Below are positions 10,203 to 34,518 of a stretch of 64,000 nt of DNA, one piece after another; the stretch's first letter is position 1; each line of letters begins with the position of its first letter. Made by a program: the position numbers and the translations under genes. The notes beneath the pieces were generated by a model. The model saw only the letters and a list, made by a program, of their open reading frames with translations. It searched no databases and had not been told where the DNA came from. Where the stretch lies: NCBI GenBank assembly GCA_003251535.1, contig QKFD01000103.1:1-64000 (forward strand), read 5' to 3'. This stretch comes from Chromatiales bacterium (GTDB taxonomy: Bacteria; Pseudomonadota; Gammaproteobacteria; Thiohalomonadales; Thiohalomonadaceae).

Positions 10203-10223
10203 GACCGAGGGCTCCTGGCGGCA

Positions 10224-11579
10224 TCAGCTGGCGGTGGGGCGATTGGGGCGGTTTGCCATGACCCGGCGCGTTGGCTGGCGATAGGCAGCAGGCCGCCCTC
10301 CACCCGGAGGAGTGGACAACAGCTGGTGGCTGGGAGAGGGGATGACCGCCGCAGGGAATGAGGGATCAAACGGATTCACACTCGTTGTAGTGCCCTGCAT
10401 CTCCTCATCCGAATCATCTTCCTCTTGGATGGCCGTAGAGAGTACTGAGAATGATGTGCTGGGGACGCTAATCAGTCCCTTGCTGGGGCCATAGAAACCC
10501 GAGGCATCGGTGAAGAATCCCAGTTTGTTACGGGTAAAGTGGTAGTCCGCAACGGGCACCGGCGAGGTAAGACCCAATACAGTGGTGTAGATGTTTTTGG
10601 TCACGTTGTCGTAACGCACCCAGTCAGAATCATTAATGCTATACACCACTACCGAGTGCTTACCGAGGCCATTACTGCCGGCATATTTACCGAGCACTTT
10701 CAGAATGAGGAGATAGGGGTGTTTGAATGAGTTGGAGTAGCCGGCTGAGGCGATTACCGCATCTGGCCGGACCAGTTCAGTGAAGGCCTTCAGTTGCGTG
10801 AGATCACTGTCTACGCCGTCATTGCTGGGCGTCATGGTACTGAGCGAACCGTGGTGGGGGGCCGATATCACCTTGACCGGCTGGACAGGGCTTGTGGTCC
10901 ACTTGTTCAGCACATTGTTGGCCGCCTGAAGGGTCTCCCAAGTGGCGTCACCAGGTAGGATCATCCGCTCGTTGGCGTAGTCGATCACTATCACCGCTGA
11001 GGTGCCATTTTTCTTCATGGCTGAGGAGCTGCTCTTGGAGATGGCGGCATCGGCCATTAAGACGCGCAACGCCACATCACCCAGCGTACCGATCTGGCCA
11101 ATAGTGCCGTTGGCATCGGCATAGTTGCTAGTGCTATTGAAGAGATAGGTGCGTGGTGCCTTGTGGTTGACACCGTACTCCTCTAGGCGATCAATCGTCT
11201 TCTTGGCGCCCGCTCCCCAGTCGGCTCCACCGTAAACAATGCGGCCGACACGCATCGGAATCTCCAGCTCATCGACTGCATCCATCAGGCTATTGAGTAG
11301 GGACCAGTGATCCATATCCTGATGAGTGACGATCACATAGTCGAGGGTGGGGGTGAGCCCCGCCTCCTGCTGCTGTAGTAACGCCTCCACTACCTTGGTG
11401 ACTGCGGGGGCCGCTTGGCTGAGTTTAAGGTTAGTTTTTTTGAACATGGTTTCGGCGCCAAAATCGACTAAGGCGATGTGGTCCGCCACCACAGCATCTA
11501 GGGTCGGGAAGCTTTGCACCATGTGCGCCATGCCTTGATCGCACCAGAGTGCCGATAACGTGAGGCGTGCCGTGCTCAT
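10224..11579 (-). CDS. ComEC-type metallo-beta-lactamase-fold protein
   Basis: This is a 451-aa soluble protein with an AAGGAG site 8 bases before the ATG. Metal-ligand motifs are visible: THQDMDH (His86, Asp88, Asp90, His91), LPGDA (Asp211) and PHHGS (His242-His243). This set is typical of the hydrolase domain at the C-terminus of ComEC/Rec2 and of stand-alone relatives, where a nuclease or phosphodiesterase activity is known or proposed. No membrane channel is present. The C-terminal 150 residues are an extra region ending in an acidic stretch (EEDDSDEEM) and a basic Pro/Arg tail. It lies between giant proteins of unknown function, so it may be the operon's enzyme. The substrate cannot be told from sequence. 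Confidence 0.85.
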   Translation of the reverse strand: MSTARLTLSALWCDQGMAHMVQSFPTLDAVVADHIALVDFGAETMFKKTNLKLSQAAPAVTKVVEALLQQQEAGLTPTLDYVIVTHQDMDHWSLLNSLMDAVDELEIPMRVGRIVYGGADWGAGAKKTIDRLEEYGVNHKAPRTYLFNSTSNYADANGTIGQIGTLGDVALRVLMADAAISKSSSSAMKKNGTSAVIVIDYANERMILPGDATWETLQAANNVLNKWTTSPVQPVKVISAPHHGSLSTMTPSNDGVDSDLTQLKAFTELVRPDAVIASAGYSNSFKHPYLLILKVLGKYAGSNGLGKHSVVVYSINDSDWVRYDNVTKNIYTTVLGLTSPVPVADYHFTRNKLGFFTDASGFYGPSKGLISVPSTSFSVLSTAIQEEDDSDEEMQGTTTSVNPFDPSFPAAVIPSPSHQLLSTPPGGGRPAAYRQPTRRVMANRPNRPTAS

Positions 11580-11691
11580 GGGTGTGCTCCTTGCTGCCGA
11601 GTGGGGTGGGCGCCAAGCAGGCTAACGGTGGCGTCGTGGTGCAGGGTGATTGGGGGCATGACGGCACTCCGGAACGGTTGCGGGCGACACA

Positions 11692-15513: not shown

Positions 15514-18500
15514 GTCCCGCTCCCCAAGGTGATGCGGTCACCACCCAGCAGCGGCAGGGTGGTGAGGCCGCTATTGGCGGCCGGCGCCCAATCGACCCGG
15601 AGTGGTGTCGTCGCGCTGGCGTTGTAGAGCGCCGGGCGCCCCGCCGGGGCGGGACCTATCCCGCGTCGCAGCTGGAGCCCACTGATGGGCAGGGCGGTGG
15701 CGGCCGGCTCCTGCGCCTGGGTCGCCAGCAGCTGACCCAAGGTGGTGCCGAGCGCCACCCACTGCTGGGTGCCATCCAGCGCCACGCTGATCTCCGCCAC
15801 CGCTGTCGCCCGGCCACGGAAGTAGATCACCCCAGCGTACTGGCTGGCGTCTTGGCCGGCCCGGGCGGCGTTGGTGGCCGCCTCCAGGGCGCTGAGTTTG
15901 TCGGCGGCGATGAGGATTGCCGTCAGCTCCGGGATGGGAGAGCCAGGCTGGTTGGCGGCCGGGAAGGTCTGGGGATAGATCAGCCGCAGGTAGGGCCGGC
16001 TCATGGTGCTGGTGCTGCTATCGATGAGCCCCCCCGCGCCGCCCTGTTTGCGGCCGGAGACCAGGGGCTGCGGTACCGTGGTGCCGCCCTGTCCGGTCAG
16101 CAGGCCGACAAAGGCGTCCAGGGTGGGGAAGCTGGCGCCTCCGCTGGCGCCCCGGCCGATGGGGTAGCGACTGACGGCGCTGGTGACGTAACCATTGAGG
16201 TAGAGCTGGTCGGCGGTGCCCGCCGGCAGGCTGACATAGCCCTCGTACTCCACCCGCAGCGCCATCCCCGGCAGCAGATCGACATAGCCCGACGCCGGAT
16301 CGAAGCGGTAGCTGTAGAACAGGGTCTCGGCGAAGGTCTGCGGCATGGCGCGGGCGATGGCGGCCTGCACCGTGCGGATCCCCTCCGGGGTGGCAGTCGC
16401 CTTCTCCAGCGCGCTGAGGAAGTCGTTGTAGGCGGTGAGTAGATCGGTGCGCAGGGCGGTGTCGGAGAAGCTCCAGGGCAGCGCATCGGCCTGGCCGGCG
16501 ATGGTGAGCTGCCAGCTGTAGGGGGCGCTGGCGGCGGCGAGGCTGAAGGGGGCCACCGCCGGCAGGGTAGCGGGCGGGGTGAGGAAGATCTGCGGCAGGC
16601 CGATGACCAGTTCATGGGCCGCCATGTTGGGCTGGGTGGCGGGGATGAGGGTCAGCACGTTCTGCCCCGCCGCCTGCGGGTAGAGGCCCGCCTGGAACAC
16701 CTCCGCGATGGCCGCCGGGCCGGTGACGCCGGGGCCGACGGCCTGCACCGACAGGCTGTAGCTCTTATTGGCGGCAAACGGCAGGGCGACGCTGCTGGCA
16801 GGGGCGGCGACCAGCCAGGGGGTACTGCTCTCGTGGCCCGCCTCCAGCAGTACCAGCCGATAGCCCGTGGCCCCCACGACCGCCGCCCAGTGGGCGCTGA
16901 GGGTGGCGCCGTCATAGGCCACGCTGAGGGTGGCGGGGGCGGCGGCGAGGAGCGGTACCTGCTCGGTCCAGGGGCCACGCAGCCCCACTGCCCCGTCTGC
17001 GGCATTGGCGGAGACGCGGAAGCTGAAGCCGCCGGCGTCGGTCAGTATCCCGGCGGGGACGAGGTAGCTGGGATCCGGGGTGGTGGCGCTGTGCAGAAGC
17101 GCCTCGCCCGACCAGATCTCCAGGTTGTAGCCGCTCGCCTTTGCCCCGCGGCCCTCGTAGGGGGTCCAGCTGAGGGTGCAGTTACCCCCGGCCGCGGGGT
17201 AGCTGGCCTGGAGGCCGCTCGCCACCCCGGTCAGGGCGGTGACCGCCGCCGACTCCGGCCCAGTGCAGTTGGCGCCCACCGCTGCGACACTGAAGCTCGC
17301 CCCGTTGTCGGTGATCGCCAGTACCGCCAACGTGCCGCTGAACAGCTCTTGGGCCACCACCGCCCCCTCGACCATGGCGGTCACCAGGTAGCCGATGACC
17401 CCGTTGTCGGGCACTGCCGCCCAGCTGATCCGGGCCAGGCCATCCACCACCTTGACCCACTTCAGTTGGGGGGTGGTGGTAATGATGGGGTAGGCGGTGC
17501 CGCTGGGGGCGGCGCTGCCGGGATCGTTGCCGATGCCGCCGGCCCACTGGCTGAGGCTCATGCCTTGGGCGCTCGCTGCGTAGGCGACATAGCTCCCACC
17601 GATGGTGGCGTTGGCGATGGTGGTGGTCTGGCTATAGCCGTTGCCCAGGGTGCCGGTGGTGGCGGGCAGACCCGGGCCATTCAGGGCGATCACGCTGCCA
17701 GTGGGCTGGGCTACCCCCGGGGCGGGCTCGATGGTGGTGGTGACCAACACCTGGCTGCCATCCACCCGGACCGACGCCTGCAACCCGCTGGGTGGGGCGA
17801 GGAGTAGCGGTACCCCACTGCTCTCGGGGCCCAGCGCCTGCCCGGCGGTGGCGGCGGAGAGGGCGGCGGTGACCTCGAACACCAGACCGAGGTTGAAGTA
17901 GCCGGTCACGCTGGCCGTGGTGGTACCGAGCTTGTCGCTCCAGATGACCTGGACCGGGGCCGAGAGGGCGACCACCTCCCCCCCTTGCCGCACCGCCGCT
18001 ACGACGTTGGCGCTCTGCGGCGTTGTGGCGCCCAGCTCCAGCTCCAGCCGTAGTTGGGTCAGGGCGGCGGCAGGCCCCGTCGAGCCGATCACCCGTGCCT
18101 GGCGGATGAGGGGGCGGGCGGTGTAGACCGTCGCCGCTGCACTCTGCGGTCCGCTAGAGAGGGGGGCGTGGGGGGTGACCAGCACCGACCAAGGGCCAGC
18201 CACATCCCGAATGCCGGCCGCCACCTCAAACTCGATACCGTTGCCCACCGTTGCCAGCGCAGTCTGGTTGCCTGCCGCGGTCTGTAGCAGCACCGCAAAC
18301 CCCTGCGGCACCACGCTCAGCGGTTTCCAGGAGAGGGTGAGACGCTGGCCGTCATAGGCGGTGGTGATACCGCTGACCGGCACGAATAGCAGCAGCGCCT
18401 TGGCGCTGACGATGCCCACGGCGCGGTCCAGCGAGAGCTGGACGTAGTAAGGCTGATCCCCGCTCAGGATGGCCGATGCCTGCCAGCTGCCGCCGTTCTT

Positions 18501-18719
18501 GCCGATCTGGCTGGTACCGGCCACCGCCTTGCCCTGGGCATCGGTCACGTTGATGACCACGCTGAGGCTCGTGCTTTCGGAGGTCCAGGTGAGGGCAAAG
18601 GCGGGTTTATCGCCCGCCTGGGTGCAGGTGACCGAGTGGAGGACAGGGGCGATGGGTGAGGTCGTTGTGCTAGTCATGGCGGCGGTATCCAATGCGGGCG
18701 ATAGGGGGTGGCTATCCAT
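15510..18719 (-). CDS. 1069-aa protein with fibronectin-III-like repeats
   Basis: This is the first gene of the giant-protein operon. The ATG at 18719 has a GGAG site 6 bases upstream; a second ATG lies 14 codons further in. Repeating units of about 90-100 residues of Fn3/immunoglobulin type fill the first 700 residues. They recur as short strands around a Trp or Tyr (LTLSWKPL, ARISWAAVPDNGVIGYLV, CTLSWTPYEGRGAKASGYNL, LSAHWAAVVGATGYRLVLLE). The C-terminal 350 residues are of unknown type. Fn3 repeats commonly act as spacers or adhesion modules in extracellular or phage-tail proteins. No signal peptide is seen, so the route outside, if any, is unclear. Confidence 0.82.
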   Translation of the reverse strand: MDSHPLSPALDTAAMTSTTTSPIAPVLHSVTCTQAGDKPAFALTWTSESTSLSVVINVTDAQGKAVAGTSQIGKNGGSWQASAILSGDQPYYVQLSLDRAVGIVSAKALLLFVPVSGITTAYDGQRLTLSWKPLSVVPQGFAVLLQTAAGNQTALATVGNGIEFEVAAGIRDVAGPWSVLVTPHAPLSSGPQSAAATVYTARPLIRQARVIGSTGPAAALTQLRLELELGATTPQSANVVAAVRQGGEVVALSAPVQVIWSDKLGTTTASVTGYFNLGLVFEVTAALSAATAGQALGPESSGVPLLLAPPSGLQASVRVDGSQVLVTTTIEPAPGVAQPTGSVIALNGPGLPATTGTLGNGYSQTTTIANATIGGSYVAYAASAQGMSLSQWAGGIGNDPGSAAPSGTAYPIITTTPQLKWVKVVDGLARISWAAVPDNGVIGYLVTAMVEGAVVAQELFSGTLAVLAITDNGASFSVAAVGANCTGPESAAVTALTGVASGLQASYPAAGGNCTLSWTPYEGRGAKASGYNLEIWSGEALLHSATTPDPSYLVPAGILTDAGGFSFRVSANAADGAVGLRGPWTEQVPLLAAAPATLSVAYDGATLSAHWAAVVGATGYRLVLLEAGHESSTPWLVAAPASSVALPFAANKSYSLSVQAVGPGVTGPAAIAEVFQAGLYPQAAGQNVLTLIPATQPNMAAHELVIGLPQIFLTPPATLPAVAPFSLAAASAPYSWQLTIAGQADALPWSFSDTALRTDLLTAYNDFLSALEKATATPEGIRTVQAAIARAMPQTFAETLFYSYRFDPASGYVDLLPGMALRVEYEGYVSLPAGTADQLYLNGYVTSAVSRYPIGRGASGGASFPTLDAFVGLLTGQGGTTVPQPLVSGRKQGGAGGLIDSSTSTMSRPYLRLIYPQTFPAANQPGSPIPELTAILIAADKLSALEAATNAARAGQDASQYAGVIYFRGRATAVAEISVALDGTQQWVALGTTLGQLLATQAQEPAATALPISGLQLRRGIGPAPAGRPALYNASATTPLRVDWAPAANSGLTTLPLLGGDRITLGSGT

Positions 18720-23349: not shown

Positions 23350-25836
23350 TCACCAGCGGGCGCGGCCGCCGCGGATATCGTAGTGGACAAAGGTGCTGTA
23401 GATCCCGAGCCCCCCTTGGCGCATCCTGCCGGCGCTAATCAGCCGTTCAATGGCGTCGTAGACCTCGCGCGGGGTGTGCTCCTTCACCTTGATGTCGGCC
23501 GCGGTGGCACACAGGTGTTGGCTGCGTGGCACCCCGCCCACGGCACTGTTGTGGGCGGGACTGCGGTAGCCGGAGATGACGGTGATGGGCTGGCCCAACT
23601 CCCCGCGCAACACCTCCAACTCGTGCATGAGGGCCTGCACATTACCGCGTAATTGACGCGGTACCTCGACCCCATCGCGGGAGTTGAACTCCGCCATGCT
23701 GAAGTGGGTGGAGGCGCAGCTCTCCGCCGGATTGACGGGACAGTGGGCCGCGAGGGTGACCTCCATCCCTTCGGTGTAGGGGATATCCTCCCGCTCGCCT
23801 ACTTCACTCTCCTCCGCCACCTCCCCCAGGCCTCGATACCAGTCGTGGTAACCCAGGGATTGGGCAATGGTGTTGCGCACCTGCTCCGATAGCAGGGCAA
23901 AACCGGCATCAAACTGTTCGTCGGTGATGCACTCTTCACCATTCTCCATGCGGGCGATCCCCTGGGCCAGCAGACGCAGGGTGGTGCGATCGATGGTCAA
24001 CTCGGTGTCGGCATCGACCGTGAGGCCCCCTTGCTTGAGGCGGTCCACCATGAAGGTGATGTAGTTGTTGGTGTGGTTGCCGTCGCTGGCCGGGGCGTAG
24101 GCGCTGATGATCTTGCTGAGGGTGTTGCGATCACCGCGCAGGTAGTTGCGCAGCAGCAGGATGAGGGCGCGGACGCCGTACTCGTAGCTGCTGAACTGCT
24201 CAAACTCGCCATCGGTATTGGTCGCTACCTTCCCCTCCCACGCCTGGTTGGAGATGCGCAGATTGCCAGGGTTGTTGTTGCGGATCCCGCGTGGCTGCTG
24301 AAAGGCGCGGGTATAGAGCGACTGACTACTGGCCGGGGCGCTGCCCTCGAACATCTGCGCCTCGGTATCGCGGCGGCGGACCAACCCCGGTAGCGTCTTG
24401 CCGCCGGCCTTGACCCACTTGCGCAGCTCCACCGGGACGGCGGCGTAGTCGCCGTCGTTGAGTTTGCGCAGCAGGGTCGAGGAGGCGAAGGCGCCGGTGC
24501 CGATGTTGTAGACGAAGCTCACCAGGGCGTCGTACTGGTGGGGTTGCAGCTCGACGGTCACCGAGTCGTTGACGGCGCGCTGGAAGTTATTGACCCGCTC
24601 CAGCAGTAGCTCCGTGGCGCGGGCCTCGGTGACGCCGCTGCTATAGGGGCCCTCGGAGGCGGCGCCGTTGCAGTTACCGCGGTGGACCAAGGTGCCGTAG
24701 CCGATGGTGCAGTGGCCCGCCGGGTCGTTATAGAGGTTGGCGCGAAAGCCCTCGAACGACTTGATGAGGTCGATCCCCGCCTGGGAGATGGTGTGGGTCA
24801 TCACCCGGGGCGGACCGGAGAGGCCGCGCGCCGCCGGTACGATGGTGTAGGCGCTGCCAAAGGAGCTACCAAAGGCGATGCTGTCGGATTGGATGGTGAG
24901 GGCACTATCGCCGGCGATCTCCGGGGCGCTGTCGAGCACAAAGCCGCGGTGTTCGAGATCCGCCAGCGACTCGGCCAACTTCCCGGCGATCCCGAGGGGG
25001 TCACGGGTCAGGGTGTTGGCGGCGTTGCGGATGATGCTGTTCATCGCCTCGATGGTGCCGCGATAGGCCTGGATCACCGCGTCGTTGAAGGAGCGGCCCG
25101 CCTTCCAGTGGCTGAAAAAGAAGAAGGTGGTGGGCTCGGGTAGATAGTTGTTGCGTTTGGAGCCGGCGCTCACCGCCGCGCCGATATCGCGCCAGGCGCT
25201 GTTCAGGGTAGAGGCGTGGCAGTTCATCATGTAGACGCTGCGCAGCCGCAGCGGTCGGCCGCCATTGCTGGCCTTGATGGAGCGGATCTGGGCGCCGTTG
25301 ATATGGCTGCCGCCGGCGAGGGCGATGCTATCGGGACCCCCATGGGTGAGGACGAGGAGATCAATGATGCGCTGCTGTTGGGTCAGTCGGACCAGGGTGT
25401 CGCGCAGCTCGCTGAAGAGGGCGCTACCGTTGCGCAGTATCACCACATCGCCATAGTGCTCCGGTTTGGCGCCGGTGTAGCGGTTGAGCGCCAGCTCCGC
25501 CTCCTCTAGCAGTGAGTCGGTGGCGCTGCGCAGCCCCTGGCGGATCCCCCGCACCAGCTCATCTTTGATCGACTGCGGGATGAGAGAGGCGCCGGGGAGG
25601 GCGGAGAGCAGCCGCTCCACCAGCTCCGGGATGCCGAGATCGACGCCCCCATTTTCGATCAGCACCACCAGTGCCCGCTGGGCGGCGGAGAGGGGGTGGG
25701 ACCAGTAGCTGGCGCTGCGGCTGGTGGTGGCGGTGGCGGTGGCGGTCAAGCTCAGCGCGCTGGTACGGCCACCGTTGCGGCCCCGCAGCCGATCCAGTTC
25801 ACTCATCTGGCGATTGATGGCGATGAAACGGTTCAT
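23350..25836 (-). CDS. Caspase-like / lysozyme / M15 peptidase chimera (828 aa)
   Basis: Four segments can be read. Residues 125-265 look like a clan-CD (caspase-like) peptidase, with His165 in LVLTHGG and Cys206 in YMMNCHA. Residues 348-498 are a T4-type (GH24) lysozyme with Glu362, Asp371 and Thr377 at the spacing of the T4 triad. Residues 515-660 (RGIRNNNPGNLR onward) resemble the P5-like or muramidase-type domain often found in phage lysis or virion proteins. Residues 700-828 form an M15A D,D-peptidase, with His774, Asp781 and His818 (SQHLCATAAD, FVHYD). There is no signal peptide. It is the last gene of the subtilase operon. Likely activity is peptidoglycan cleavage of both glycan and peptide bonds. 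The caspase-like domain may process partner proteins. The combination is unusual. Confidence 0.85.
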   Translation of the reverse strand: MNRFIAINRQMSELDRLRGRNGGRTSALSLTATATATTSRSASYWSHPLSAAQRALVVLIENGGVDLGIPELVERLLSALPGASLIPQSIKDELVRGIRQGLRSATDSLLEEAELALNRYTGAKPEHYGDVVILRNGSALFSELRDTLVRLTQQQRIIDLLVLTHGGPDSIALAGGSHINGAQIRSIKASNGGRPLRLRSVYMMNCHASTLNSAWRDIGAAVSAGSKRNNYLPEPTTFFFFSHWKAGRSFNDAVIQAYRGTIEAMNSIIRNAANTLTRDPLGIAGKLAESLADLEHRGFVLDSAPEIAGDSALTIQSDSIAFGSSFGSAYTIVPAARGLSGPPRVMTHTISQAGIDLIKSFEGFRANLYNDPAGHCTIGYGTLVHRGNCNGAASEGPYSSGVTEARATELLLERVNNFQRAVNDSVTVELQPHQYDALVSFVYNIGTGAFASSTLLRKLNDGDYAAVPVELRKWVKAGGKTLPGLVRRRDTEAQMFEGSAPASSQSLYTRAFQQPRGIRNNNPGNLRISNQAWEGKVATNTDGEFEQFSSYEYGVRALILLLRNYLRGDRNTLSKIISAYAPASDGNHTNNYITFMVDRLKQGGLTVDADTELTIDRTTLRLLAQGIARMENGEECITDEQFDAGFALLSEQVRNTIAQSLGYHDWYRGLGEVAEESEVGEREDIPYTEGMEVTLAAHCPVNPAESCASTHFSMAEFNSRDGVEVPRQLRGNVQALMHELEVLRGELGQPITVISGYRSPAHNSAVGGVPRSQHLCATAADIKVKEHTPREVYDAIERLISAGRMRQGGLGIYSTFVHYDIRGGRARW

Positions 25837-25972
25837 GGTTGCTCCTTGTCGCAGTGTGCGACCGCAATCTGGGACCCCTCCTGCGAATGCCCGTGAGGCG
25901 CTGGTGGCGCAGGGGCCGCGGACCTCCTCGCCTCAGACGGACCGCTCGCCCGCGGTGGACGGCGTGGGGGGG

Positions 25973-26809
25973 TCACGCCGGCCCCTCCTCCTGGGCCTGC
26001 CGATCAAACTGGTCGAAGCGCTGCTGTAGCTCCAGCGCCCCTAGGTCGTAGGCGGTGGCGTAGCGCATGTTCTGGGCAATGCGATCGAATATCTCGTGTT
26101 CGTTGCTGCCCTCCGCTGGCGCCGGCGGCGCCGGGGCCGGGAGGGCGGGCTGCGGCACGGCGGCGGCCGGTGGCGGTGTGGCTGGCGCCGGGGGAGGCGC
26201 CGGACCGGTCGGCGCCGCGCCACCGAGGATCGATTGGATGTCGGCCAGCAGGTCGTCGTCGCGGATCAGCCCTTGCAGCTGGCGGGCGGTGAAGTCACCG
26301 CTACTCGCGGTGCGCGCCGGGGCGGATGCCTGGCCATCGCCCCCCTCCGCTTGAGGCACCTCTGGCACTGGCGCTGGCGGTGGGCAAGAGGCGGTGGGTT
26401 GGGGTGGGGTCTGCGCCGCGGTGGGGGCGGGCCGTCCAGGTGTCACGGGCCGCTGCTGGGCAGGGGGCGGCGGGCTGCCCACGGCCGCTGTGGGTGACCA
26501 GGAGAGGGGGGCGCTGGCCGGGGGTTGGGCCAGCCGCTCGGGATCGCTAACGGCGACCTCATACTCCACCAGCGCCCCGGTGCCGAGGTCATACTCCGGG
26601 GTGGCGGCGGCGGGCTGCTGGTGTACCGCGATCGGGGTGCCATCATCGAACGGGTGGCTGATGAGGGTGACGGTGCGCTTGGGCGCGCCCATGCCGCGGG
26701 CGGCGAGGATGGCGCGCTGCGGTGCCGGCGCCCACGGCTTGGGCCACTGGGCACTGTGGGCGGAGCGGCGCAGTAGTTGTCGATATTGATGCAGTGGATC
26801 CGCTTTCAT
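25973..26809 (-). CDS. Proline-rich adaptor-like protein (278 aa)
   Basis: The ATG at 26809 overlaps the preceding stop (ATGA), which decides the start over an upstream in-frame ATG. A short folded N-terminus (residues 1-95) is followed by about 150 residues of Pro/Ala linker, interrupted by a short helical piece (DFTARQLQGLIRDDDLLADI). The protein ends in a conserved-looking helix (EHEIFDRIAQNMRYATAYDL, then ELQQRFDQFDRQ). This layout of a flexible linker carrying short helical motifs is typical of a scaffold or recruiting protein. No family is recognised. It is followed after 136 bases by the chimeric hydrolase. Confidence 0.8.
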   Translation of the reverse strand: MKADPLHQYRQLLRRSAHSAQWPKPWAPAPQRAILAARGMGAPKRTVTLISHPFDDGTPIAVHQQPAAATPEYDLGTGALVEYEVAVSDPERLAQPPASAPLSWSPTAAVGSPPPPAQQRPVTPGRPAPTAAQTPPQPTASCPPPAPVPEVPQAEGGDGQASAPARTASSGDFTARQLQGLIRDDDLLADIQSILGGAAPTGPAPPPAPATPPPAAAVPQPALPAPAPPAPAEGSNEHEIFDRIAQNMRYATAYDLGALELQQRFDQFDRQAQEEGPA

Positions 26810-27561
26810 GGCGAGGACTCCCCGCTGCCGGGGTGGCGCATCTGGACCCGGGCGATGCAATAGGGGTCCAGGGTGAGGATCAGGTCGTTGGAGAGGTGCA
26901 GCGGTGTACCGGGGGCGGGGTGGATGGTGAGGCGGTTGGGGCCATACTCCACCACCTCGCCAAGGTGGTTGTTGACCAAGGCCACCGGCTCGTAGCCGGC
27001 ACTGGCCAGGTTGTGGCCCTCCACCAGGATCACCGGTTGCCCGGCGCTGCGGCTGAGGGAGAGCTTGGTCACCTGGGGCGGGGTGCGACTGCGCCGCGCC
27101 TTGCGAATGAGGTTGGCGAGATTTTTGTAATCGAGGCCGGTGTTGCCGGTGGCCTGTTTCAGATCGATGCCGCGCTGTTCAATCTGCTCTAGATCGCCCA
27201 CCGAGGTGACACCGAGGCGACGCAGCTCCTTTTTGGTGCCCGGATCCACATCCACGGTGTCGAGTTTGAGATCGCTCTCTTGGGCCGGTGCCTTACTGGT
27301 GGCGCGGACCTGTTGGTCGGTGATGGAGGCGAGCTGCAAGGAGATCTTGGAGGCGCCACTCTCACCCGGTTGGGCGGTCTTGAAGCGCACATCGTCACCA
27401 TCGAAGGTGGGGAAGATTTGCAGCTCCAGCGCCATATCCTTCACCGTGTAGGTGAGCGGTTTGTTGATCGATTTGATCGCCAAGGTCTCGCGGGTCTTAT
27501 CCAGCTCGACCACCAGCGAGTCAACGAACGACTCCAAGCTCCAGGCGCTGTTCTCCGTCAC
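26806..27561 (-). CDS. Helix-hairpin-helix / IPT-like domain protein (251 aa)
   Basis: I chose the GTG at 27561, which has an AGAGGGGG site upstream and follows directly on the previous gene; the longer frame would overlap that gene and has a low-complexity Pro/Arg leader. Residues 1-90 form a small beta domain starting with a helix (SLESFVDSLVVELDKTRETL), similar in feel to trypco2-type domains. Residues 104-157 look like a helix-hairpin-helix unit (VDPGTKKELRRLGVTSVGDL). Residues 163-240 look like an IPT/TIG immunoglobulin-type fold (VILVEGHNLASAGYEPVALV). Function is unknown; it may be a binding or assembly protein. It ends in an ATGA overlap with the proline-rich gene. Confidence 0.78.
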   Translation of the reverse strand: MTENSAWSLESFVDSLVVELDKTRETLAIKSINKPLTYTVKDMALELQIFPTFDGDDVRFKTAQPGESGASKISLQLASITDQQVRATSKAPAQESDLKLDTVDVDPGTKKELRRLGVTSVGDLEQIEQRGIDLKQATGNTGLDYKNLANLIRKARRSRTPPQVTKLSLSRSAGQPVILVEGHNLASAGYEPVALVNNHLGEVVEYGPNRLTIHPAPGTPLHLSNDLILTLDPYCIARVQMRHPGSGESSP

Positions 27562-27577
27562 GGCGTCGCCCCCTCTG

Positions 27578-27943
27578 TTACCACCCCGCCTGTTGGGCGG
27601 GGGGCGGCTGGGGATCGGTGGCCTCTGGCCCGGCGGCCACCTCCTCGGTGGGCGCCGGCGCTGGGGCGGGTCCATCTGCCACGGCGGTAAAACGCAGTCG
27701 ATGCAGGACCGGCTCCACCGTCACATCCACTGCATAGATGGGCGGGGCTACCCCCAGCGCCAGGGAGCCGTCGGCCTGGACCTGCACCGACAACTCAATG
27801 GGGGTCTCCACCGCCAGCTCCTCCACCCACATGCTGACCCCCGCCTCCTCATCACTGAGGCGACCGATCACATCGGTGTAGGCGAGCAGGTTCTCGCGCA
27901 GAAAGGCGAAGGCGGGATCGGGAGGGGTATGGGACTGGCTCAT
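27578..27943 (-). CDS. Small acidic protein with Pro/Ala tail (121 aa, hypothetical)
   Basis: The start overlaps the stop of the 58-aa gene (ATGA). Residues 1-90 are a compact mixed domain (FLRENLLAYTDVIGRLSDEE, then beta strands with VDVTVEPVLHRLRF). The last 30 residues are Pro/Ala/Glu-rich and probably disordered. It lies in the middle of the operon and is tightly coupled on both sides, which supports it as a real gene. No family or activity is recognised. Confidence 0.75.
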   Translation of the reverse strand: MSQSHTPPDPAFAFLRENLLAYTDVIGRLSDEEAGVSMWVEELAVETPIELSVQVQADGSLALGVAPPIYAVDVTVEPVLHRLRFTAVADGPAPAPAPTEEVAAGPEATDPQPPPAQQAGW

Positions 27944-28116
27944 GACGCCCCCTCCTTGCGGGGGACCGCTGTTAACAGCACCGGCAGCAGCGCCACCTTC
28001 TCATCGGTGACCCGTTGGTAACCGGGAAAGTCGGGCGGCTCTGTTCCGTCGTTGGCGGAGGGTTCCGACTCATCCCACTCGTCGGAGAAGGCGCTGCCCA
28101 GATCGTATTCGGCCAT
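27940..28116 (-). CDS. Small acidic protein (58 aa, hypothetical)
   Basis: The frame runs from the ATG at 28116 to a TGA that overlaps the next ATG. The protein is short and acidic at the start (MAEYDLGSAFSDEWDESEPS), with a more hydrophobic C-terminal half (KVALLPVLLTAVP). It starts 10 bases after the 694-aa gene. Tight coupling on both sides is the evidence for expression. It could be a linker peptide or chaperone-like partner; nothing in the sequence settles this. Confidence 0.65.
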   Translation of the reverse strand: MAEYDLGSAFSDEWDESEPSANDGTEPPDFPGYQRVTDEKVALLPVLLTAVPRKEGAS

Positions 28117-28126
28117 GGTGAGTCCC

Positions 28127-30211
28127 CTAGTCCGATTTCAGTGCAACAAAGTGGAGTGACGACGGCAGGGGGAACGGCACGCGCCGCTCGCGGGTACTGA
28201 GCACCTGGCCGTTGGGGTCCACCTCCGTCACATCACCTAGCCGGATCTCCGCCAGGGTCACCTCTGGGTAGACCCAGATCACCCCCACCTGGGAGCGCTT
28301 GCCGCTGAAGCGGAGGTGGGTGGTGGCTTGGAGATCCAGCAGGGGGCGTAGCTCGCTGCTCTTGAGCGCCGCCAGTAGGCCCGCCTCTAGCGGCGGTTGG
28401 TCAAACAGCAGTGGCAGCAGTTTGGCCAGCTCCTCCAGGCTCAGCTCCATCCCACTCTTGAGGCGACCGTGGAGCTTGTGGGTGCGGTCGTCCGGCTCCT
28501 GCGCTGCGAGCGCCAGGCGGCTATCGACCCGGCCGTTGCTGGGCTGTTCAAAGGTGGCACGCAGGTAGTAGCGGCAGAGCAGATCCAGTTCCCAGCGCAC
28601 CGCTCTACTGCCGGGGGCCACCCCCCCTTCGTACAACTTGTGCCAGAAGGCGCGGTAGCGTTGGGGGTCATTGAGCGGGCGTTCACGCCCCCCCGCTCTA
28701 TCGACCGCCATCAGCAGGGTATGGTCGGCGAGGTAGATGGGGTGATCGACCTGCACCCCTCGGCTCCCGCCGCGCACCGGCCAGCGCAGGACGGCACTGG
28801 CGTTGAGATCGCGGTGGCGCGGCAGCGCCCGCAGCTGGTCGGCCGAGAGGGTGATCTTGAGCGGGGCGCCGGGCTGGAGTTGGCTGAGTCGCTCGCTATG
28901 GCGCAGTAGGGTCTGTTGGCTCTCCAGGTCGATCAGCGCTAGCTCCAGGATGGCCCGCGGCAGGGGTGGCAGGTTGGCTTGGGCGTGGCGATCAAGCAGC
29001 TGCCAGACCAGGGTGATGCCGCTATCGGGCTGATAGACCCACTTCGATTTACCCCCCAATGGCAGGGCTGGGGCCGCCACAAAGGTAAGGCCGAAACGCT
29101 CCGATGGGGCGGGCCGCGGCGGGCCAGCGGCTAGGCTGAAGCCCTGGGCGGTGGTCGGCGGTGCGGTGGTGGTCGGCAGGGTGGCCAACAGCTCCCGCAA
29201 GAGGGCGCTGCGGTTGGCCTCTGCCAGCAGGTTGGCGACAAACTGCTGCTGGTTCTGCTGCTGCTGGAGCCGGTTGTCGAGCCGCGACTGCAACAGGGTG
29301 GTGAAGAACTGGAGCGGTCGGTCAGTCAGGATCTGCAACAGCTGCGGTGCCTGCTGGAGCAGGGGACCCAGCAGTGATGCCAGCAGCGGACCACTGAGCA
29401 GCGCGCCGGTCATGGCGTGGCCATATTCGAGCCGCGGGCCGGTGGCGCCGCGGTAGCGGTTGGGCTGGCGTGACTGCGCTTGGGCCGGTGCCGGTGCCGC
29501 TGGCGCTGGGGTGGCGTTGGCCCCTTGCAAGCGCCCGAGGTGGGCCAGGAGTTCCAACAGTGGCGCCAGGTCGTTCGTGCCGCTGGCCGCCGGGGTGCCT
29601 GACGGCGGCGGCGGTGCGCCGATGCCACCCAGGAGCCCCGGGAGTTGGGCGAGCAGGGTGGGGGCGGCGGCGCGCAGCAGCGAGACCAGTTGGTCGAGGA
29701 ACAGCGGCCGACTGAGCTGCGACTCTTGGAAAGAGAACGCCAGCCGCCGGGCAGGTAGGAGTGGCGTGGTCATGCCCATTGCCTCCGCTGCGGGTACCGC
29801 CAGGCGCGAGAAGGGGTCCTCCAGCGCCAGCAGCCCGGGTTCGCGCAGCACCGCCCCTCCGCTGATCCCAGCCGGCATGGTGATGACGGGGGAGTAGGCG
29901 GGGCCGCTGCGCCGCTGGTCTCGATAGCTGGTGAGTTGGATGTGGTGCGCCTCCCGGCTGAAGAGGCGGGCGGGGACCCGTAGCGCAAAACGCCCGGAGA
30001 GGGGCGATAGGTTGTCCCGCGGGCGTGGCTGGAGGCCGGAGCGGTGGACCACATTGGCGAGCCGTGCCAACCCCCAGGGGGGGCCCTGTGGTTGGGGATC
30101 CGGGGTGCCGATTTCGTATTCGTAGAACCCATTGCTGCCGAGGTCCGCGACAAACTGGTGATCTCCCGCCGGCGGTAGGTCGCTGCTTACCGCCAGGTAG
30201 GCCAGGGCCAT
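28127..30211 (-). CDS. 694-aa protein of unknown family
   Basis: The N-terminal 160 residues are beta-type and end in GISGGAVLREPGLLALEDPF. The middle (about 170-370) has amphipathic, Leu-rich helices (LASLLGPLLQQAPQLLQILT) and a Gln-rich patch (NRLQQQQNQQQFVANLL), separated by Pro/Ala linkers. The C-terminal 300 residues form mixed domains. The hydrophobic helices are too Gln/Pro-broken to be clear membrane spans. It is the fourth gene of the subtilase operon, 24 bases after the 345-aa gene. It could be a structural subunit; no homologous family is recognised. Confidence 0.8.
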   Translation of the reverse strand: MALAYLAVSSDLPPAGDHQFVADLGSNGFYEYEIGTPDPQPQGPPWGLARLANVVHRSGLQPRPRDNLSPLSGRFALRVPARLFSREAHHIQLTSYRDQRRSGPAYSPVITMPAGISGGAVLREPGLLALEDPFSRLAVPAAEAMGMTTPLLPARRLAFSFQESQLSRPLFLDQLVSLLRAAAPTLLAQLPGLLGGIGAPPPPSGTPAASGTNDLAPLLELLAHLGRLQGANATPAPAAPAPAQAQSRQPNRYRGATGPRLEYGHAMTGALLSGPLLASLLGPLLQQAPQLLQILTDRPLQFFTTLLQSRLDNRLQQQQNQQQFVANLLAEANRSALLRELLATLPTTTAPPTTAQGFSLAAGPPRPAPSERFGLTFVAAPALPLGGKSKWVYQPDSGITLVWQLLDRHAQANLPPLPRAILELALIDLESQQTLLRHSERLSQLQPGAPLKITLSADQLRALPRHRDLNASAVLRWPVRGGSRGVQVDHPIYLADHTLLMAVDRAGGRERPLNDPQRYRAFWHKLYEGGVAPGSRAVRWELDLLCRYYLRATFEQPSNGRVDSRLALAAQEPDDRTHKLHGRLKSGMELSLEELAKLLPLLFDQPPLEAGLLAALKSSELRPLLDLQATTHLRFSGKRSQVGVIWVYPEVTLAEIRLGDVTEVDPNGQVLSTRERRVPFPLPSSLHFVALKSD

Positions 30212-30235
30212 GGTGGTTGCGCTCTGGGCGGTACG

Positions 30236-31273
30236 TTAGCGGGCGCCTGGGGTGGGGGCCGCCGGCTGGCCGGGGGCCCCTCCCTGTCCTGCCGGTTGCA
30301 GCGCCGCAACGCCGCCGTCGCCATACATGTTGGCGAAGTTGTCCAGCTTGAAATAGTCGGTTTTGAACTTGATGTTGACCCGGCCCATCAACTTGGCGAA
30401 CAGCTCATCCTTCGCCTCTTTGTTGGAGGTGTTGATCTGGATGTTGGTGTTGCTGATGCTGGCCGAGCCGCTCGGGCCGCCGAATATGCCGCCGAGGGGC
30501 GGGTCATAGCTGAAGTTGGCGTTGACGGTGTTGATGTTCTGGCCCTGATGGGCGCGGGTACTGGTGCGGTTGGCGGTGATGCGGAACTCCACCGCCGCCT
30601 CCACCTCACCTTTCTCCACCACCAGGCGGGTCACCCCCATCAGCAGCACCTCGCGCAGGGCGGCGCGGTGCTCCTTGGCCATGGCGATCTTCGCATCCAT
30701 GATGCGCGCCTTGACCTCGTTGTCCTCCATATCCACCTTTTCGCCTTCGGGGTTGGTCAGCGCCATCTTCTGGCTGCCATCCGCCTGCTGCTCCAGGGTG
30801 ACATTGAACTGATTGCCCCGGGTCTCGGCGAGATAGGCGAAGGTGTCGTCATCCTTTACCTTCTTGACGAAATCGGCCGTGCTCTTGGTGGCCTCGCGCA
30901 TCAGGCGGATGAAGTCGTCGGTCTGCGCCTTCATCACCTTCAGGTTGGCGTTGAATACCGCCTTCAACAGGTCAGCGACAAACTTCGGGAAATCGACGGA
31001 ATCGACCAGTTCGTTGAAGGCCTCGGTACTGCCATCGAAGCCGGGGTCATACCCGCCGAAGCCCATCCCGCTGCCCGGCCCCTTCTTGGCCATGGCGGAG
31101 GCGAGGCCGTGCTGCTGCGATAGCCGGTCGAGATGTTCATTGACCACATGCCGGTAGATGTCGCTCTGTTCTGCCATCGGCATGGCGCGGAAGGCGTTGC
31201 TACCAGCGAGTTGGCTGCGGGCCAGCTGGCGCGCCTGGTCGGTGAGTTGGGCAAGCAGTTCGGTATCCGACAT
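30236..31273 (-). CDS. 345-aa helical protein of unknown family
   Basis: The first 230 residues are mainly charged helices (for example IMDAKIAMAKEHRAALREVL), followed by a beta-rich part (residues 225-310) with Asn/Ser/Thr-rich strands (INTVNANFSYDPPLGGIFGG). The tail is Gly/Pro-rich. Lack of cysteine, the helix-plus-strand layout and the low-complexity tail would suit a structural or assembly protein. There is no signal peptide. It lies between the 611-aa and 694-aa genes with short gaps, so co-expression is very likely. Confidence 0.8.
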   Translation of the reverse strand: MSDTELLAQLTDQARQLARSQLAGSNAFRAMPMAEQSDIYRHVVNEHLDRLSQQHGLASAMAKKGPGSGMGFGGYDPGFDGSTEAFNELVDSVDFPKFVADLLKAVFNANLKVMKAQTDDFIRLMREATKSTADFVKKVKDDDTFAYLAETRGNQFNVTLEQQADGSQKMALTNPEGEKVDMEDNEVKARIMDAKIAMAKEHRAALREVLLMGVTRLVVEKGEVEAAVEFRITANRTSTRAHQGQNINTVNANFSYDPPLGGIFGGPSGSASISNTNIQINTSNKEAKDELFAKLMGRVNIKFKTDYFKLDNFANMYGDGGVAALQPAGQGGAPGQPAAPTPGAR

Positions 31274-31334
31274 GGGGGCTCTCTCTTACTGCGGCGCAAG
31301 ACTCGCCACCGCGGCGCGGCGGCATCAACTCCTG

Positions 31335-33170
31335 TTAGAAATTCCAATCCTCTGAACCACCGCCTGAGCCGCTGGGCAGCCCCCCCACCGGCATCCCCGG
31401 GGGCATCGGCAACTGCGGCAGGCCGTGGCCGTAACCACCCTCGTCCACCACCTCACCGCCGGCCTCGGGCTGATCACCCAACTGGCTCTCGGCGACGATG
31501 TAGGCATCGACGGTGGAGATGAAGTTGCCGAAGGCGGTGGCATCCTCCACCAGGGCCGGGGTCGCCTGGGCGATGGTGGAGAGGATCTTGTGGCCGTAGA
31601 TCCCTTTGTTGCGTAGCGGGTTGAGATCGCTGGTGCCGCGCACGGTTTCGATGACGCGCCAGAAGGAGGGGCTACCGCGGCGCGAGAGCTGGGCTTTGAT
31701 GTCGTTGCTGTCCAGCAGCCGGCGGACCACAAAATCCATCTCGCGGTAGATGCGCGGTGCGGTCACCTTGGCCATGCCGGCGCAGAAGCTGGAGAGGTTG
31801 TACTGGAGGTCTTCGATCGCCTGGTAGACCTTCTGCGGTGAGATGGCGAGGCCGATGCCGGCGTTCTCCTCCACCTTGGCGATGTAGCGGGCGGTCTCGG
31901 TCATCAGTACCGCCCAGAGCCGTGGAAAATCGCTGTTGACCGCCATGCCGTCGGTGACCGGCGCCTGACCCACGCCAAACACCTGTCGATAGAACATCTG
32001 CCGCTCCGCCGGTGGGATGCGCCGGTAGGTGCGGCCGCTCCGGAGGTCTTCAAACCGCTCATCCAGGGCGTAGAGCGAGAGATCCTCCGCCACCTGCTGC
32101 TGGCGGATGGAGAGCTGGTACTGCGTGGAGGTCTGGCCGATGATGCGCTCGATCACCTCAAAGATGCCGATCTGATCACCCCACACCATGGTGTAGAAGA
32201 GCATGGCCGCCGCCTCGACGCTGCTGCGGTCGAACTCCAGGGAGGTGCTGTTCTCGTCGTAGTAGTCAACGGAGTAGTCCTCCACCGTCAACTCGCCATC
32301 GGGGTCGCTGCTGCGACTCGGTTGGGCGTTGTTGAGCTGGGTGAGGGCGATGGAGACGTAGTAGGCCGCGTTGTCGGCGGTGATGGGGATCTTGGACTGC
32401 TTCAGGTAGGCGAGCAGCGGTGGGATGTCGGCATCGGGGATCTCCCCCAACTCCTTCTCCGCGGCCTCCAGGATGGCGAGCTTGTCGGCGTCGTAGACAT
32501 ATTCGCGGAATAGCGCGTTGACTCGGGCGGCGAAGGCGTTCTGCTCCATCGATACCACGCTCTGGCGCAGCCGGGCGACGATCTGATCATCCACCGAGCT
32601 GTTCGGTAGATCGATGCGCCGCTCCTTCTTCCAATCCCACACCGACTTGGCGACCACAAAGTCGTAGATCCGCTTCCAAGAGCCGCGGCTGGCGGTGATG
32701 AAACTGAAGATCCCCTCCGGGGTATCCAGTTCGTCGAGGACGATGGCCAGGGTGATGAGGTAGTCAACGATGTTGGGGTAGGCGAGGATCTGACGGAGGT
32801 TGTAGTCCAGGCCGTTACTGTTGCTGCGCAGCAGCTGTTTGACGTTGAAATAGTGCTTGGTGTACCCCTTGCGGTCGGCATATTCCGCCAAGGTGAGGCG
32901 ACTCTCCGAGCCTTGATCCAGCACCCGCAGCAGGGTGCGCACGGTGGCCAGGTGGCTATAGATGGGTAGCTTGAGGGCGGCCACCAGCTCCGCCTCGGGC
33001 GCGGCGCTCTCGCCGGTTGGCCAGTCGAAGCCGCGCTCCAGCCGCGCCTCTAGTAGATCGAGTGCCGCAGCGGGGTAGGGGTGGAGGGCCGCAGACGCCC
33101 CCTCTTTCAATAGCGCCGGACGGATGAAGCGTAGTCCCATGGGCTCAGCAGAGAGAGAGACGGTGCTCAT
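31335..33170 (-). CDS. 611-aa helical protein of unknown family
   Basis: The ATG at 33170 has an AAGAGAA site 8 bases upstream; the longer frame overlaps the protease gene and was not chosen. The protein is predominantly helical and acidic, with no recognised catalytic motif. Segments such as LRQILAYPNIVDYLITLAIV and AAMLFYTMVWGDQIGIFEVI are hydrophobic but look like buried helices rather than membrane spans. The end is Gly/Pro-rich. It is the second gene of the operon, 28 bases after the subtilase. It could be a substrate or partner of the protease; this is inference from position. Confidence 0.8.
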   Translation of the reverse strand: MSTVSLSAEPMGLRFIRPALLKEGASAALHPYPAAALDLLEARLERGFDWPTGESAAPEAELVAALKLPIYSHLATVRTLLRVLDQGSESRLTLAEYADRKGYTKHYFNVKQLLRSNSNGLDYNLRQILAYPNIVDYLITLAIVLDELDTPEGIFSFITASRGSWKRIYDFVVAKSVWDWKKERRIDLPNSSVDDQIVARLRQSVVSMEQNAFAARVNALFREYVYDADKLAILEAAEKELGEIPDADIPPLLAYLKQSKIPITADNAAYYVSIALTQLNNAQPSRSSDPDGELTVEDYSVDYYDENSTSLEFDRSSVEAAAMLFYTMVWGDQIGIFEVIERIIGQTSTQYQLSIRQQQVAEDLSLYALDERFEDLRSGRTYRRIPPAERQMFYRQVFGVGQAPVTDGMAVNSDFPRLWAVLMTETARYIAKVEENAGIGLAISPQKVYQAIEDLQYNLSSFCAGMAKVTAPRIYREMDFVVRRLLDSNDIKAQLSRRGSPSFWRVIETVRGTSDLNPLRNKGIYGHKILSTIAQATPALVEDATAFGNFISTVDAYIVAESQLGDQPEAGGEVVDEGGYGHGLPQLPMPPGMPVGGLPSGSGGGSEDWNF

Positions 33171-33198
33171 AGCGTTGTTCTCTTGTGCGTTCGAGGTA

Positions 33199-34518
33199 TC
33201 AAGCTGCGCGCCGTTGCCCGAGCAGGTAGTCGAGCATTCGGCTGGCATCCAGTAGATTGAGTTGACCATAACCTCCGCGGGCGGTGCGCAGTCGCTGATC
33301 CAGTTTGTCGGAGGTGTGCAGCAAAATGGTTTTGATCTGGGCGTCGCTGAGGCGTGCGCCGCGGGCGAGGGCCTGGCTCTTCAACAGCGCAACGGCGCCG
33401 GTGACAAATGGCGAGGCCTGCGAGGTGCCCGAGGCCATCGCGTAGCCGCCGTGGGCGTAGGCGCTGAAGATGTCGGTGCCGGGGGCCACCAGCCAGACCG
33501 GTGCGCCGTAGGAGGAGAAGTCGGCTACCTCCCCTTGGGCGTTGGCGGCACCGACGGCGATGACGCCGGGGAGGGCGCCCGGATAGTATTTTTCACCGCT
33601 GCCGTCGTTGCCGCTGGCGGCCACCACCGTCACCCCGCGGGCCAGGGCGTAGGCGATCACCTCCTGGTGGGGGAGGCCGCCAGCGGTGTGGCGTACCCCC
33701 AGGCTCATGTTGATCACATCCGCCCCCTGATCCACCGCCCATTTGATGCCCACGTTGATGTTGTCCACCAGACCGGCCCCGACGACTCGATCCCCGGAGC
33801 GCATGGTGGCGAGCACCCGCACGGCCATCAGTGAACACTCCGGCACCACCCCCTCCGGCATCTGGCGACCGGCGGCGGCGATGATGCCGGAGACGTGGGT
33901 ACCGTGACCCACCTCATCCTCCGGCACCTCGTCGTAGCCCTCCTTGTCGCCGATGAATTGGGCGCTATCGAGTGCCCCCAGTTGAACGAAGTCGGCCCGG
34001 TGGGTGATGCGTGCCGCCACCTCCGGGTGATCGAGATCAACCCCGGTATCGAGTACGGCCACTTTGATGCGTGGATCGCCCCCGCCAAACAGCCGCCGCG
34101 CCTGCCGCAGGCCAATCAGCTCACGCGAGCGGTCGCTGCTGAGTTGCACCGCCTGCGCCTCGGGCAGCTCCGGCAACGGGCTCTGCGCCAGGCCGATGGC
34201 GCGGACATACTCCACCTCGGGGAGCTGCTGGATCGCCTCGATGAGCGGCGGCGGGAGGGCGACCTCCCGCTGGAGGATGAGGCGATAGATGCGGTTGAGG
34301 CCGGTGCTGATCTCCAGCGGCGACCAGCCGCCTGATTGAGCGGGGTGGTGTTCCAGGGTGACCCAGATGCGCACGCCCGCGCGGGCCAGGGCGCGGTCTA
34401 CCGCTGGGGTGAAGGACTCTAGGGTGTGGCTTTTGTCGGCGATGAAACGGCCCCAAAATGGGATCGGCACGCGCCGCGCCAGGGGTTGGTGGGTCTTGAT
34501 GATGAGATGGGGCTTCAC
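33199..34518 (-). CDS. Subtilisin-like serine protease (S8 family)
   Basis: I chose the GTG at 34518 because a strong AAGGAG lies 10 bases upstream; the frame also extends further upstream without support. The 439-aa protein has an N-terminal region of about 150 residues (possible propeptide or binding domain) and a full S8 catalytic domain. The triad is Asp157 (VAVLDTGVD), His205 (GHGTHVSG) and Ser366 (ASGTSQASPF), with oxyanion Asn304 (ASGND). There is no signal peptide, so it is predicted to act in the cytoplasm or leave by a non-Sec route. It is the first gene of its operon. Maturation of the operon's other proteins is a plausible role, unproven. Confidence 0.92.
   Translation of the reverse strand: MKPHLIIKTHQPLARRVPIPFWGRFIADKSHTLESFTPAVDRALARAGVRIWVTLEHHPAQSGGWSPLEISTGLNRIYRLILQREVALPPPLIEAIQQLPEVEYVRAIGLAQSPLPELPEAQAVQLSSDRSRELIGLRQARRLFGGGDPRIKVAVLDTGVDLDHPEVAARITHRADFVQLGALDSAQFIGDKEGYDEVPEDEVGHGTHVSGIIAAAGRQMPEGVVPECSLMAVRVLATMRSGDRVVGAGLVDNINVGIKWAVDQGADVINMSLGVRHTAGGLPHQEVIAYALARGVTVVAASGNDGSGEKYYPGALPGVIAVGAANAQGEVADFSSYGAPVWLVAPGTDIFSAYAHGGYAMASGTSQASPFVTGAVALLKSQALARGARLSDAQIKTILLHTSDKLDQRLRTARGGYGQLNLLDASRMLDYLLGQRRAA

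What the first reader, a model, noticed from the sequence alone, without database searches (positions are those of the whole stretch)
23350..34518. Undescribed operon of a subtilase, a caspase-like/lysozyme chimera and unknown structural proteins
Nine genes lie on one strand with ATGA overlaps or short gaps. They include an intact S8 protease at the front, a peptidoglycan-degrading chimera at the back, and seven proteins I cannot place. None has a Sec signal even though the last one attacks the cell wall. This pattern is seen in phage- or particle-like systems and lysis-released toxins. No sheath, tube, capsid, portal or AAA+ gene is present, so it is not a standard contractile injection system or prophage. 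A self-processing particle or programmed lysis device is my guess.
Basis: partly seen in the sequence, partly recalled or inferred. Interest (0 to 1): 0.88.

Follow-up and report, generated by a model that had tools for sequence, protein, structure and literature searches.

The report
Mobile cassette of tagged wall-cutting enzymes
A set of nine neighbouring bacterial genes, kept in the same order in at least 13 unrelated bacteria from several phyla, seems to build a previously undescribed protein assembly that gathers cell-wall-cutting and toxin-like enzymes by a shared short tag and controls them with proteases.

Summary
In detail: nine minus-strand genes (23350-34518) run from a subtilase with intact catalytic motifs to an 828-aa protein with a caspase-like dyad, GH24 lysozyme, a transglycosylase-like stretch and M15 peptidase. 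The unknown core proteins match nothing reliable in Pfam, PHROGs, NCBIfam or the PDB by sequence. It is rare (about 1 in 100-400 genomes sampled). What varies is the cargo behind the core: lysozyme, M15/VanY, amidase, C92 and C70 peptidases, EndoU. Otherwise unrelated cargo proteins share an N-terminal tag (consensus NRLLALEQSL, up to three copies per protein), and adaptors share a second motif (HxIFD...FDLG...FD). A tag model trained on cyanobacterial loci ranks cargo of other phyla first (p = 1e-7). Best explanation: a cytoplasmic, Sec-independent assembly that docks wall-cutting enzymes and releases them under protease control, after lysis or membrane perforation. Docking and conservation are supported by sequence; assembly, perforation and target are inferred. 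A Trypco2-like adaptor makes suicidal lysis the main rival.

The parts
33199..34518 (-). Subtilase (S8), 439 aa, GTG start inferred from alignment; no signal peptide evident; N-terminal ~130-aa family-specific region
   Evidence: Pfam Peptidase_S8 1.7e-49; D/H/S motifs; 52% identical to the Tolypothrix plasmid S8; first core gene in every complete cassette
31335..33170 (-). '644' family core protein (611 aa from the ATG at 33170); acidic DDWNF-type C-terminus; no known family
   Evidence: syntenic in 13 loci
30236..31273 (-). '345' family core protein; helices then a predicted amphipathic beta-hairpin with a conserved hydrophobic tip (GLLGxIFGG); no known family
   Evidence: four paralogues in a Burkholderia pyrrocinia plasmid cassette
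30368..30607 (-). Predicted beta-hairpin and tip of the 345 protein (residues 223-302)
   Evidence: AlphaFold2 strands 223-238 and 287-302, low confidence; beta hydrophobic moment 0.59-0.61 versus 0.20-0.24 shuffled
28127..30211 (-). '694' family core protein: N-terminal beta domain, central hydrophobic helices, C-terminal beta-sandwich domains
   Evidence: AlphaFold2 model, mean pLDDT 68, C-terminal part mostly above 85; Ig-like/transglutaminase-type beta-sandwich matches, Z up to 9.0 over about 115 residues
27940..28116 (-). Small ninth gene, 58 aa; conserved C-terminal motif (GxxVxFDxxVxxxPVxL-like), found elsewhere as a tail of other cassette proteins
27578..27943 (-). '121' family core protein
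26806..27561 (-). '289' family core protein (251 aa from GTG): Trypco2-like N-terminus, C-terminal TIG-like domain
   Evidence: distant homologue L035 has TIG 8.2e-11 and Trypco2 0.0019
25973..26809 (-). Adaptor, mostly low-complexity; carries the HEIFDRIAQNMRYATAYDLGALELQQRFDQFD motif
25985..26098 (-). FD-box motif of the adaptor
   Evidence: motif listed in adaptors of other loci and visible in the L005 adaptor
23350..25836 (-). Cargo protein, 828 aa: docking tag, caspase-like domain, GH24 lysozyme, transglycosylase-like stretch, M15 peptidase
25786..25836 (-). N-terminal docking tag MNRFIAINRQMSELDRL (degenerate form of NRLLALEQSL)
24847..25689 (-). Caspase-like (clan CD-like) domain, His165/Cys206
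   Evidence: invariant in four homologues; no profile match
24361..24762 (-). Phage-type GH24 lysozyme domain, catalytic E/D/T intact
   Evidence: Pfam PF00959 2.1e-43; PDB lysozymes 1e-31; E-x8-D-x5-T
23887..24297 (-). Phage endolysin/transglycosylase-like stretch
   Evidence: phrog_873 5.7e-36; PDB 9vvp Gp29 3.7e-14, 7q47 endolysin
23377..23679 (-). M15 peptidase domain
   Evidence: Pfam PF08291 4.9e-19

Best explanation
The nine genes are one copy of a rare, horizontally spread cassette. Shown by sequence: a constant core (subtilase plus six unknown families, counting the small 58-aa motif) followed by an FD-box adaptor and variable cargo, most of it peptidoglycan-cleaving enzymes, several joined to cysteine-protease-like domains. 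Supported by sequence statistics: cargo carries a short N-terminal tag (NRLLALEQSL type, one to three copies) that acts as a docking signal to the core. Inferred: the core proteins assemble in the cytoplasm without Sec export; the 694 protein (beta-sandwich domains plus hydrophobic helices) and the 345 protein (beta-hairpin with hydrophobic tip) are scaffold and membrane-active parts; the subtilase and the caspase-like or papain-like domains cut cargo free. On lysis or membrane perforation the enzymes reach peptidoglycan, probably of other cells.
For: Same core order in 13 loci of four phyla and truncated copies in two more loci. The 345-family tree joins the window with Bacteroidota, Roseobacteraceae and Acidobacteriota at 100/99 support, against taxonomy. 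Cargo varies while the core is constant: GH24+M15 (window, L004, L005), M15_4/VanY (L004, L005), Amidase_2 (L010, Burkholderia), Extensin-like_C (L010, L011), C70 (L008, L010-L012, Burkholderia), C92 (L014, Burkholderia), EndoU (L034). Tag: a regex hits only cassette adaptors and cargo in 259,000 residues of ORFs; a PSSM from cyanobacterial instances ranks cargo of other phyla 1st-3rd and 7th-8th of 854 ORFs, p=1.3e-7; a degenerate DNA form matches 7 places in 12 genomes or records, 6 in the cassettes, 0 for the reversed control. FD-box in adaptors of most complete loci. Amphipathic hairpin and tip.
Against: No experiment. The 345 model is poor (mean pLDDT 55, hairpin under 50) and the fold matches of the 694 model are generic beta-sandwiches. 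The window's own tag is degenerate (23rd of 854) and some cargo scores low (L013 382 aa, L014). The regex was written after seeing the motif; only the PSSM test is held out. No immunity gene was identified and no target is known. The Tolypothrix plasmid copy lacks adaptor and cargo next to an IS701 transposase. A Trypco2-like domain points to intracellular conflict systems instead.
Confidence: 0.45

Rival explanations
1. Intracellular suicide or anti-phage system: the complex senses infection or stress, the subtilase starts a proteolytic cascade through the Trypco2-like adaptor, and tagged hydrolases lyse the producing cell from within, with the 345/694 proteins acting like a holin.
For: Weak Trypco2 similarity, a family described in trypsin-centred conflict systems; a further system of the same study recruits lysozyme and papain-like wall peptidases through EAD1 (PMC7159879); proteases without evident signal peptides; no immunity gene seen next to the cargo; patchy distribution.
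Against: No STAND, MoxR or other NTPase recognised in the cassette; no PADLOC match for the core apart from one weak non-specific hit and general subtilase models; flanks in the window are ordinary genes.
Confidence: 0.33
2. Cargo and accessory module of a contractile injection system (eCIS) encoded elsewhere in the genome.
For: The window's genome has two sheath-family ORFs on another contig; polymorphic-toxin work lists subtilisin and caspase domains with PVC systems (PMC3482391).
Against: 7 of 13 cassette genomes or records give no sheath hit; the core profiles match no eCIS protein in the PDB by sequence; eCIS signals have no conserved sequence motif (PMC11297309), unlike this tag.
Confidence: 0.05
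3. RiPP or cyanobactin-like pathway with a PatA-type subtilase and the 58-aa gene as precursor.
For: S8 resembles PatA/PatG and mycosin models below their cut-offs; the ninth gene is small.
Against: The small motif is fused to large proteins elsewhere, so it is a domain and not a precursor; no tailoring enzymes recognised in the window's cassette.
Confidence: 0.03
4. Remnant prophage lysis and tail genes.
For: Lysozyme and transglycosylase-like stretches resemble phage endolysins.
Against: No homologue of the core proteins tested in phages or viral contigs; no capsid, portal or terminase; core conserved as a unit across phyla.
Confidence: 0.03

Closest known systems
Ternary and peptidase-centred conflict systems with Trypco1/Trypco2 adaptors (PMC7159879)
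   Same: Trypco2-like domain, subtilisin and caspase-type peptidases, recruited lysozyme and papain-like wall peptidases as effectors, patchy distribution
   Different: No NTPase, trypsin or EAD1 recognised here; unknown core families in fixed order; a short linear tag instead of EAD domains
Extracellular contractile injection systems (PVC/Afp) with N-terminal cargo signals
   Same: Constant delivery genes followed by variable toxin genes; N-terminal loading region
   Different: No tail tube, baseplate or AAA+ gene recognised in the cassette and no sheath hit in 7 of 13 genomes or records; loading signals there lack a conserved motif (PMC11297309)
Bacterial microcompartment encapsulation peptides
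   Same: Short, probably helical tag joined by a disordered linker to otherwise unrelated cargo (compare PMC12339742)
   Different: No BMC shell family match in the core; cargo is lytic, not metabolic
Polymorphic toxin systems (PMC3482391)
   Same: Interchangeable toxin domains, caspase-like and papain-like processing peptidases, EndoU
   Different: No Rhs, HINT, T6SS or T7SS features noted; no immunity gene identified; dedicated multi-gene core
Type VII mycosin and PatA subtilases
   Same: Catalytic S8 domain (E 1e-49 and 8e-33)
   Different: Scores below the curated cut-offs; different neighbourhood

Membership tests
Subtilase (Peptidase S8) | S8 domain with Asp/His/Ser catalytic motifs | tested here: met
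Extracellular contractile injection system | Contractile sheath gene in the genome | tested here: not met
   7 of 13 cassette genomes or records without a PF04984 hit; the window's own genome does have one on another contig
Extracellular contractile injection system | Sequence homology of core proteins to known eCIS/phage-tail proteins | tested here: not met
   PDB profile searches without significant match; PHROGs without significant match to the unknown core proteins. Fold-level relatedness was not excluded
Trypco conflict systems | Trypco2 domain | tested here: inconclusive
   below gathering score: 0.0019 in L035, best 0.069 among close homologues
Trypco conflict systems | MoxR/STAND NTPase or trypsin partner in the operon | tested here: not met
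   No Pfam, NCBIfam or PADLOC match of this kind in the window cassette
Polymorphic toxin | Variable toxin domains on a constant tag region | tested here: met
Polymorphic toxin | Cognate immunity gene next to the toxin | tested here: inconclusive
   A few post-cargo genes scanned; regulator, epimerase or unknown, no immunity family recognised
DUF2589 | Profile similarity of the 345 family | tested here: inconclusive
   hhalign probability about 0.1%, but the DUF2589 set built in the script was tiny and only partly made of DUF2589 proteins
Caspase-like (clan CD) peptidase | His-Gly and Cys dyad in a caspase fold | tested here: inconclusive
   Dyad invariant in four homologues; no sequence match, fold not predicted
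Bacterial microcompartment or encapsulin | Shell protein | tested here: not met
   No shell family among Pfam hits of the core

The most novel reading that the evidence does not exclude
A new class of bacterial protein particle or organelle-like assembly, unrelated to phage tails, capsids or microcompartments, that packages lytic enzymes through a short helical tag and delivers them across membranes through pores made by its own beta-hairpin subunits, spreading as a cassette between phyla.
Probability: 0.3. Interest if true: 0.93.

Novelty: categorically new. Interest (0 to 1): 0.82.

Why it matters
If right, bacteria have one more way to handle and deploy wall-cutting enzymes without Sec or a contractile syringe, with a loading tag of about ten residues that could be tested directly with reporter fusions. 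It also gives several protein families without annotation a shared context across at least four phyla.

Tried and rejected
Prophage, eCIS accessory and RiPP readings (see rivals). DUF2589 as a relative of the 345 family: recalled from memory; an hhalign test gave no support, but with a very small and impure comparison set. Structure of the 345 protein: low confidence, fold search uninformative. Foldseek hits of the 694 model to transglutaminase, complement and Vps26 taken as generic beta-sandwich matches; viral matches are long low-TM alignments. Plasmid search with a synthetic FD-box consensus gave nothing. Empty-site comparison not achieved: the flanking gene tested is missing or poorly conserved in the family. 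Literature searches for a description of the cassette found none in the open library; subscription papers and preprints were not searched.
Full report
Observation. Nine minus-strand genes lie between 23350 and 34518. Mapping starts by alignment gives S8 (439 aa, GTG at 34518), 611, 345, 694, 58, 121, 251, 278 and 828 aa. ATGA overlaps join the 251- and 278-aa genes (26806-26809) and the 58- and 121-aa genes (27940-27943). Only the first and last have confident Pfam domains: Peptidase_S8; Phage_lysozyme and Peptidase_M15_3. PHROGs and PDB add a transglycosylase-like stretch between lysozyme and M15 in the last protein. Catalytic motifs of S8 and the lysozyme E/D/T triad are intact. The N-termini show no evident signal peptide and no 19-residue stretch exceeds a mean Kyte-Doolittle hydropathy of 1.6.

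Conservation. tblastn found the same genes on a Tolypothrix plasmid in the same order. A genome scan with a two-sequence alignment gave twelve more loci: Chitinophagales, Fulvivirga, Thetidibacter, Skermanella, Defluviimonas, Aurantiacibacter, two unassigned Proteobacteria, Desulfobacterales, Desulfobulbaceae, Thermoanaerobaculia and Elainella. ORF annotation shows the order S8-644-345-694-121-289 in every complete locus; with the cyanobacterial genome G645, Tolypothrix and the window this makes 13 complete cassettes and two truncated by contig ends. Some loci insert a coiled-coil or peptidoglycan-binding-annotated protein after S8, or split the 644 protein. Diverged cassettes occur in the cyanobacterial genome G722 (L035) and on a Burkholderia pyrrocinia plasmid with four 345 and two 644 paralogues. 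The 345-family tree puts the window with Bacteroidota, Roseobacteraceae and Acidobacteriota at 100/99 support, against taxonomy. Sampling finds the cassette in 1 of 398 genomes of the window's phylum, 2 of 339 cyanobacterial genomes plus one distant match, 1 of 289 of the Thetidibacter class, and 1 of 296 Bacteroidota plus one distant match; these counts include the genome that seeded each sample. None of 55 relatives has the 644 protein.

The ninth gene. A 58-aa frame at 27940-28116 ends in a short motif that recurs as small genes in L004, L005 and L007, as the C-terminus of the 436-, 1178- and 366-aa cyanobacterial proteins, and as the C-terminus of the 694-type protein in L006 and L010-L012. 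It is therefore read as a conserved building block.

Cargo. Behind the core lie an adaptor and one to three variable proteins. Domains found include GH24 lysozyme with M15 (window, L004, L005), M15_4/VanY (L004, L005), Amidase_2 (L010, Burkholderia), Extensin-like_C (L010, L011), PG_binding_1 (L012), C70 papain-like peptidase (L008, L010-L012, Burkholderia), C92 (L014, Burkholderia) and EndoU (L034). The caspase-like domain of the window protein is shared with L004, L005 and L007, with invariant His and Cys, but no profile recognises it. Domains for L005 beyond the lysozyme/M15 homology rest on similarity to the window protein and its sequence.

Docking tag. The N-termini of these proteins share a motif, clearest in cyanobacteria (NRLLALEQSL, up to three copies per protein). 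A regex hits only cassette adaptors and cargo in 259,000 residues of ORFs; it was written after inspection. As a held-out test, a PSSM built only from cyanobacterial instances was applied to 854 ORFs of the other loci: ranks 1-3, 7 and 8 are cargo, Mann-Whitney p=1.3e-7; the window's own tag ranks 23rd. The cargo proteins are not all independent of each other (L010-L012 are close relatives), so the p-value is optimistic. A degenerate DNA pattern hit 7 places in 12 genomes or records, six of them in the two cyanobacterial cassettes, with none for the reversed control. Adaptors share a second motif (the L005 copy is visible).

Core proteins. None of the unknown ones has a confident match in Pfam, PHROGs, NCBIfam or PDB. 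The 289 family has TIG (8.2e-11) and weak Trypco2 (0.0019) in its distant L035 homologue. The 694 model has a confident C-terminal beta-sandwich part and uncertain hydrophobic helices. The 345 model is poor, but two predicted strands have high beta moments (0.59 and 0.61 against 0.24 and 0.20 shuffled) around a conserved GLLGxIFGG-like tip, which suggests but does not show membrane insertion.

Mechanism. The data support a constant machine with interchangeable tagged cargo, mostly wall hydrolases, and protease control. Shown: conservation, transfer, cargo variation. Supported statistically: the tag. Inferred: assembly, membrane action, release by proteolysis, and direction (other cells or self). 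Delivery is put at 0.45 and suicide or defence at 0.33, because Trypco2 and the lack of recognised immunity genes fit the latter.

Comparison. Contractile systems fail on sheath presence and on sequence homology. Conflict systems with Trypco (PMC7159879) are the nearest relatives by parts. Encapsulation peptides (PMC12339742) and eCIS signals (PMC11297309) are the nearest analogues of the tag. No description of the cassette was found in the open literature library; subscription journals and preprints were not searchable, so 'categorically new' is a statement about what could be searched here.

Noticed in passing
window 2628-18719 (-): Second same-strand block: 2524-aa, 451-aa (metallo-beta-lactamase fold, weak ComEC/6A-MBL/Avs1a similarity), 1273-aa and 1069-aa proteins; the three large ones have no family above cut-off. 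Not related to the cassette proteins by phmmer.
   Followed up: partly
G000:C27:36556-39592: The window's genome carries two contractile-sheath-family ORFs on another contig, so it may encode an injection system.
   Followed up: no
L035 12920-14266, L039 7611-9359, L040 8528-10375: Cyanobacterial cassettes have neighbouring proteins with a hydrophobic stretch and S-layer-homology-like repeats; two of them and some core-associated proteins share a short NWxxLxxLF motif: a possible envelope anchor.
   Followed up: partly
L003 21732-23042: In the Tolypothrix plasmid an IS701 transposase sits directly behind the 289-family gene; adaptor and cargo are missing.
   Followed up: no
L035 5727-7325: Diverged 289-family protein fused to TIG and to a solute-binding-protein family 5 domain.
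   Followed up: no
L036 5265-6906: Two tandem distant 345-family paralogues in a Bacteroidota genome without the rest of the cassette nearby.
   Followed up: no
L004 18157-18978: Third tagged-looking protein behind the cassette (MYTNRFISNAFSIQRK) with HLGVD and HVHV motifs suggesting an M23-like peptidase; Pfam gives no match.
   Followed up: partly
L010 14186-16582: Adaptor with Amidase_2 plus an N-terminal stretch with an HIACHGD...WGCYCG pattern, possibly another caspase-like domain.
   Followed up: no
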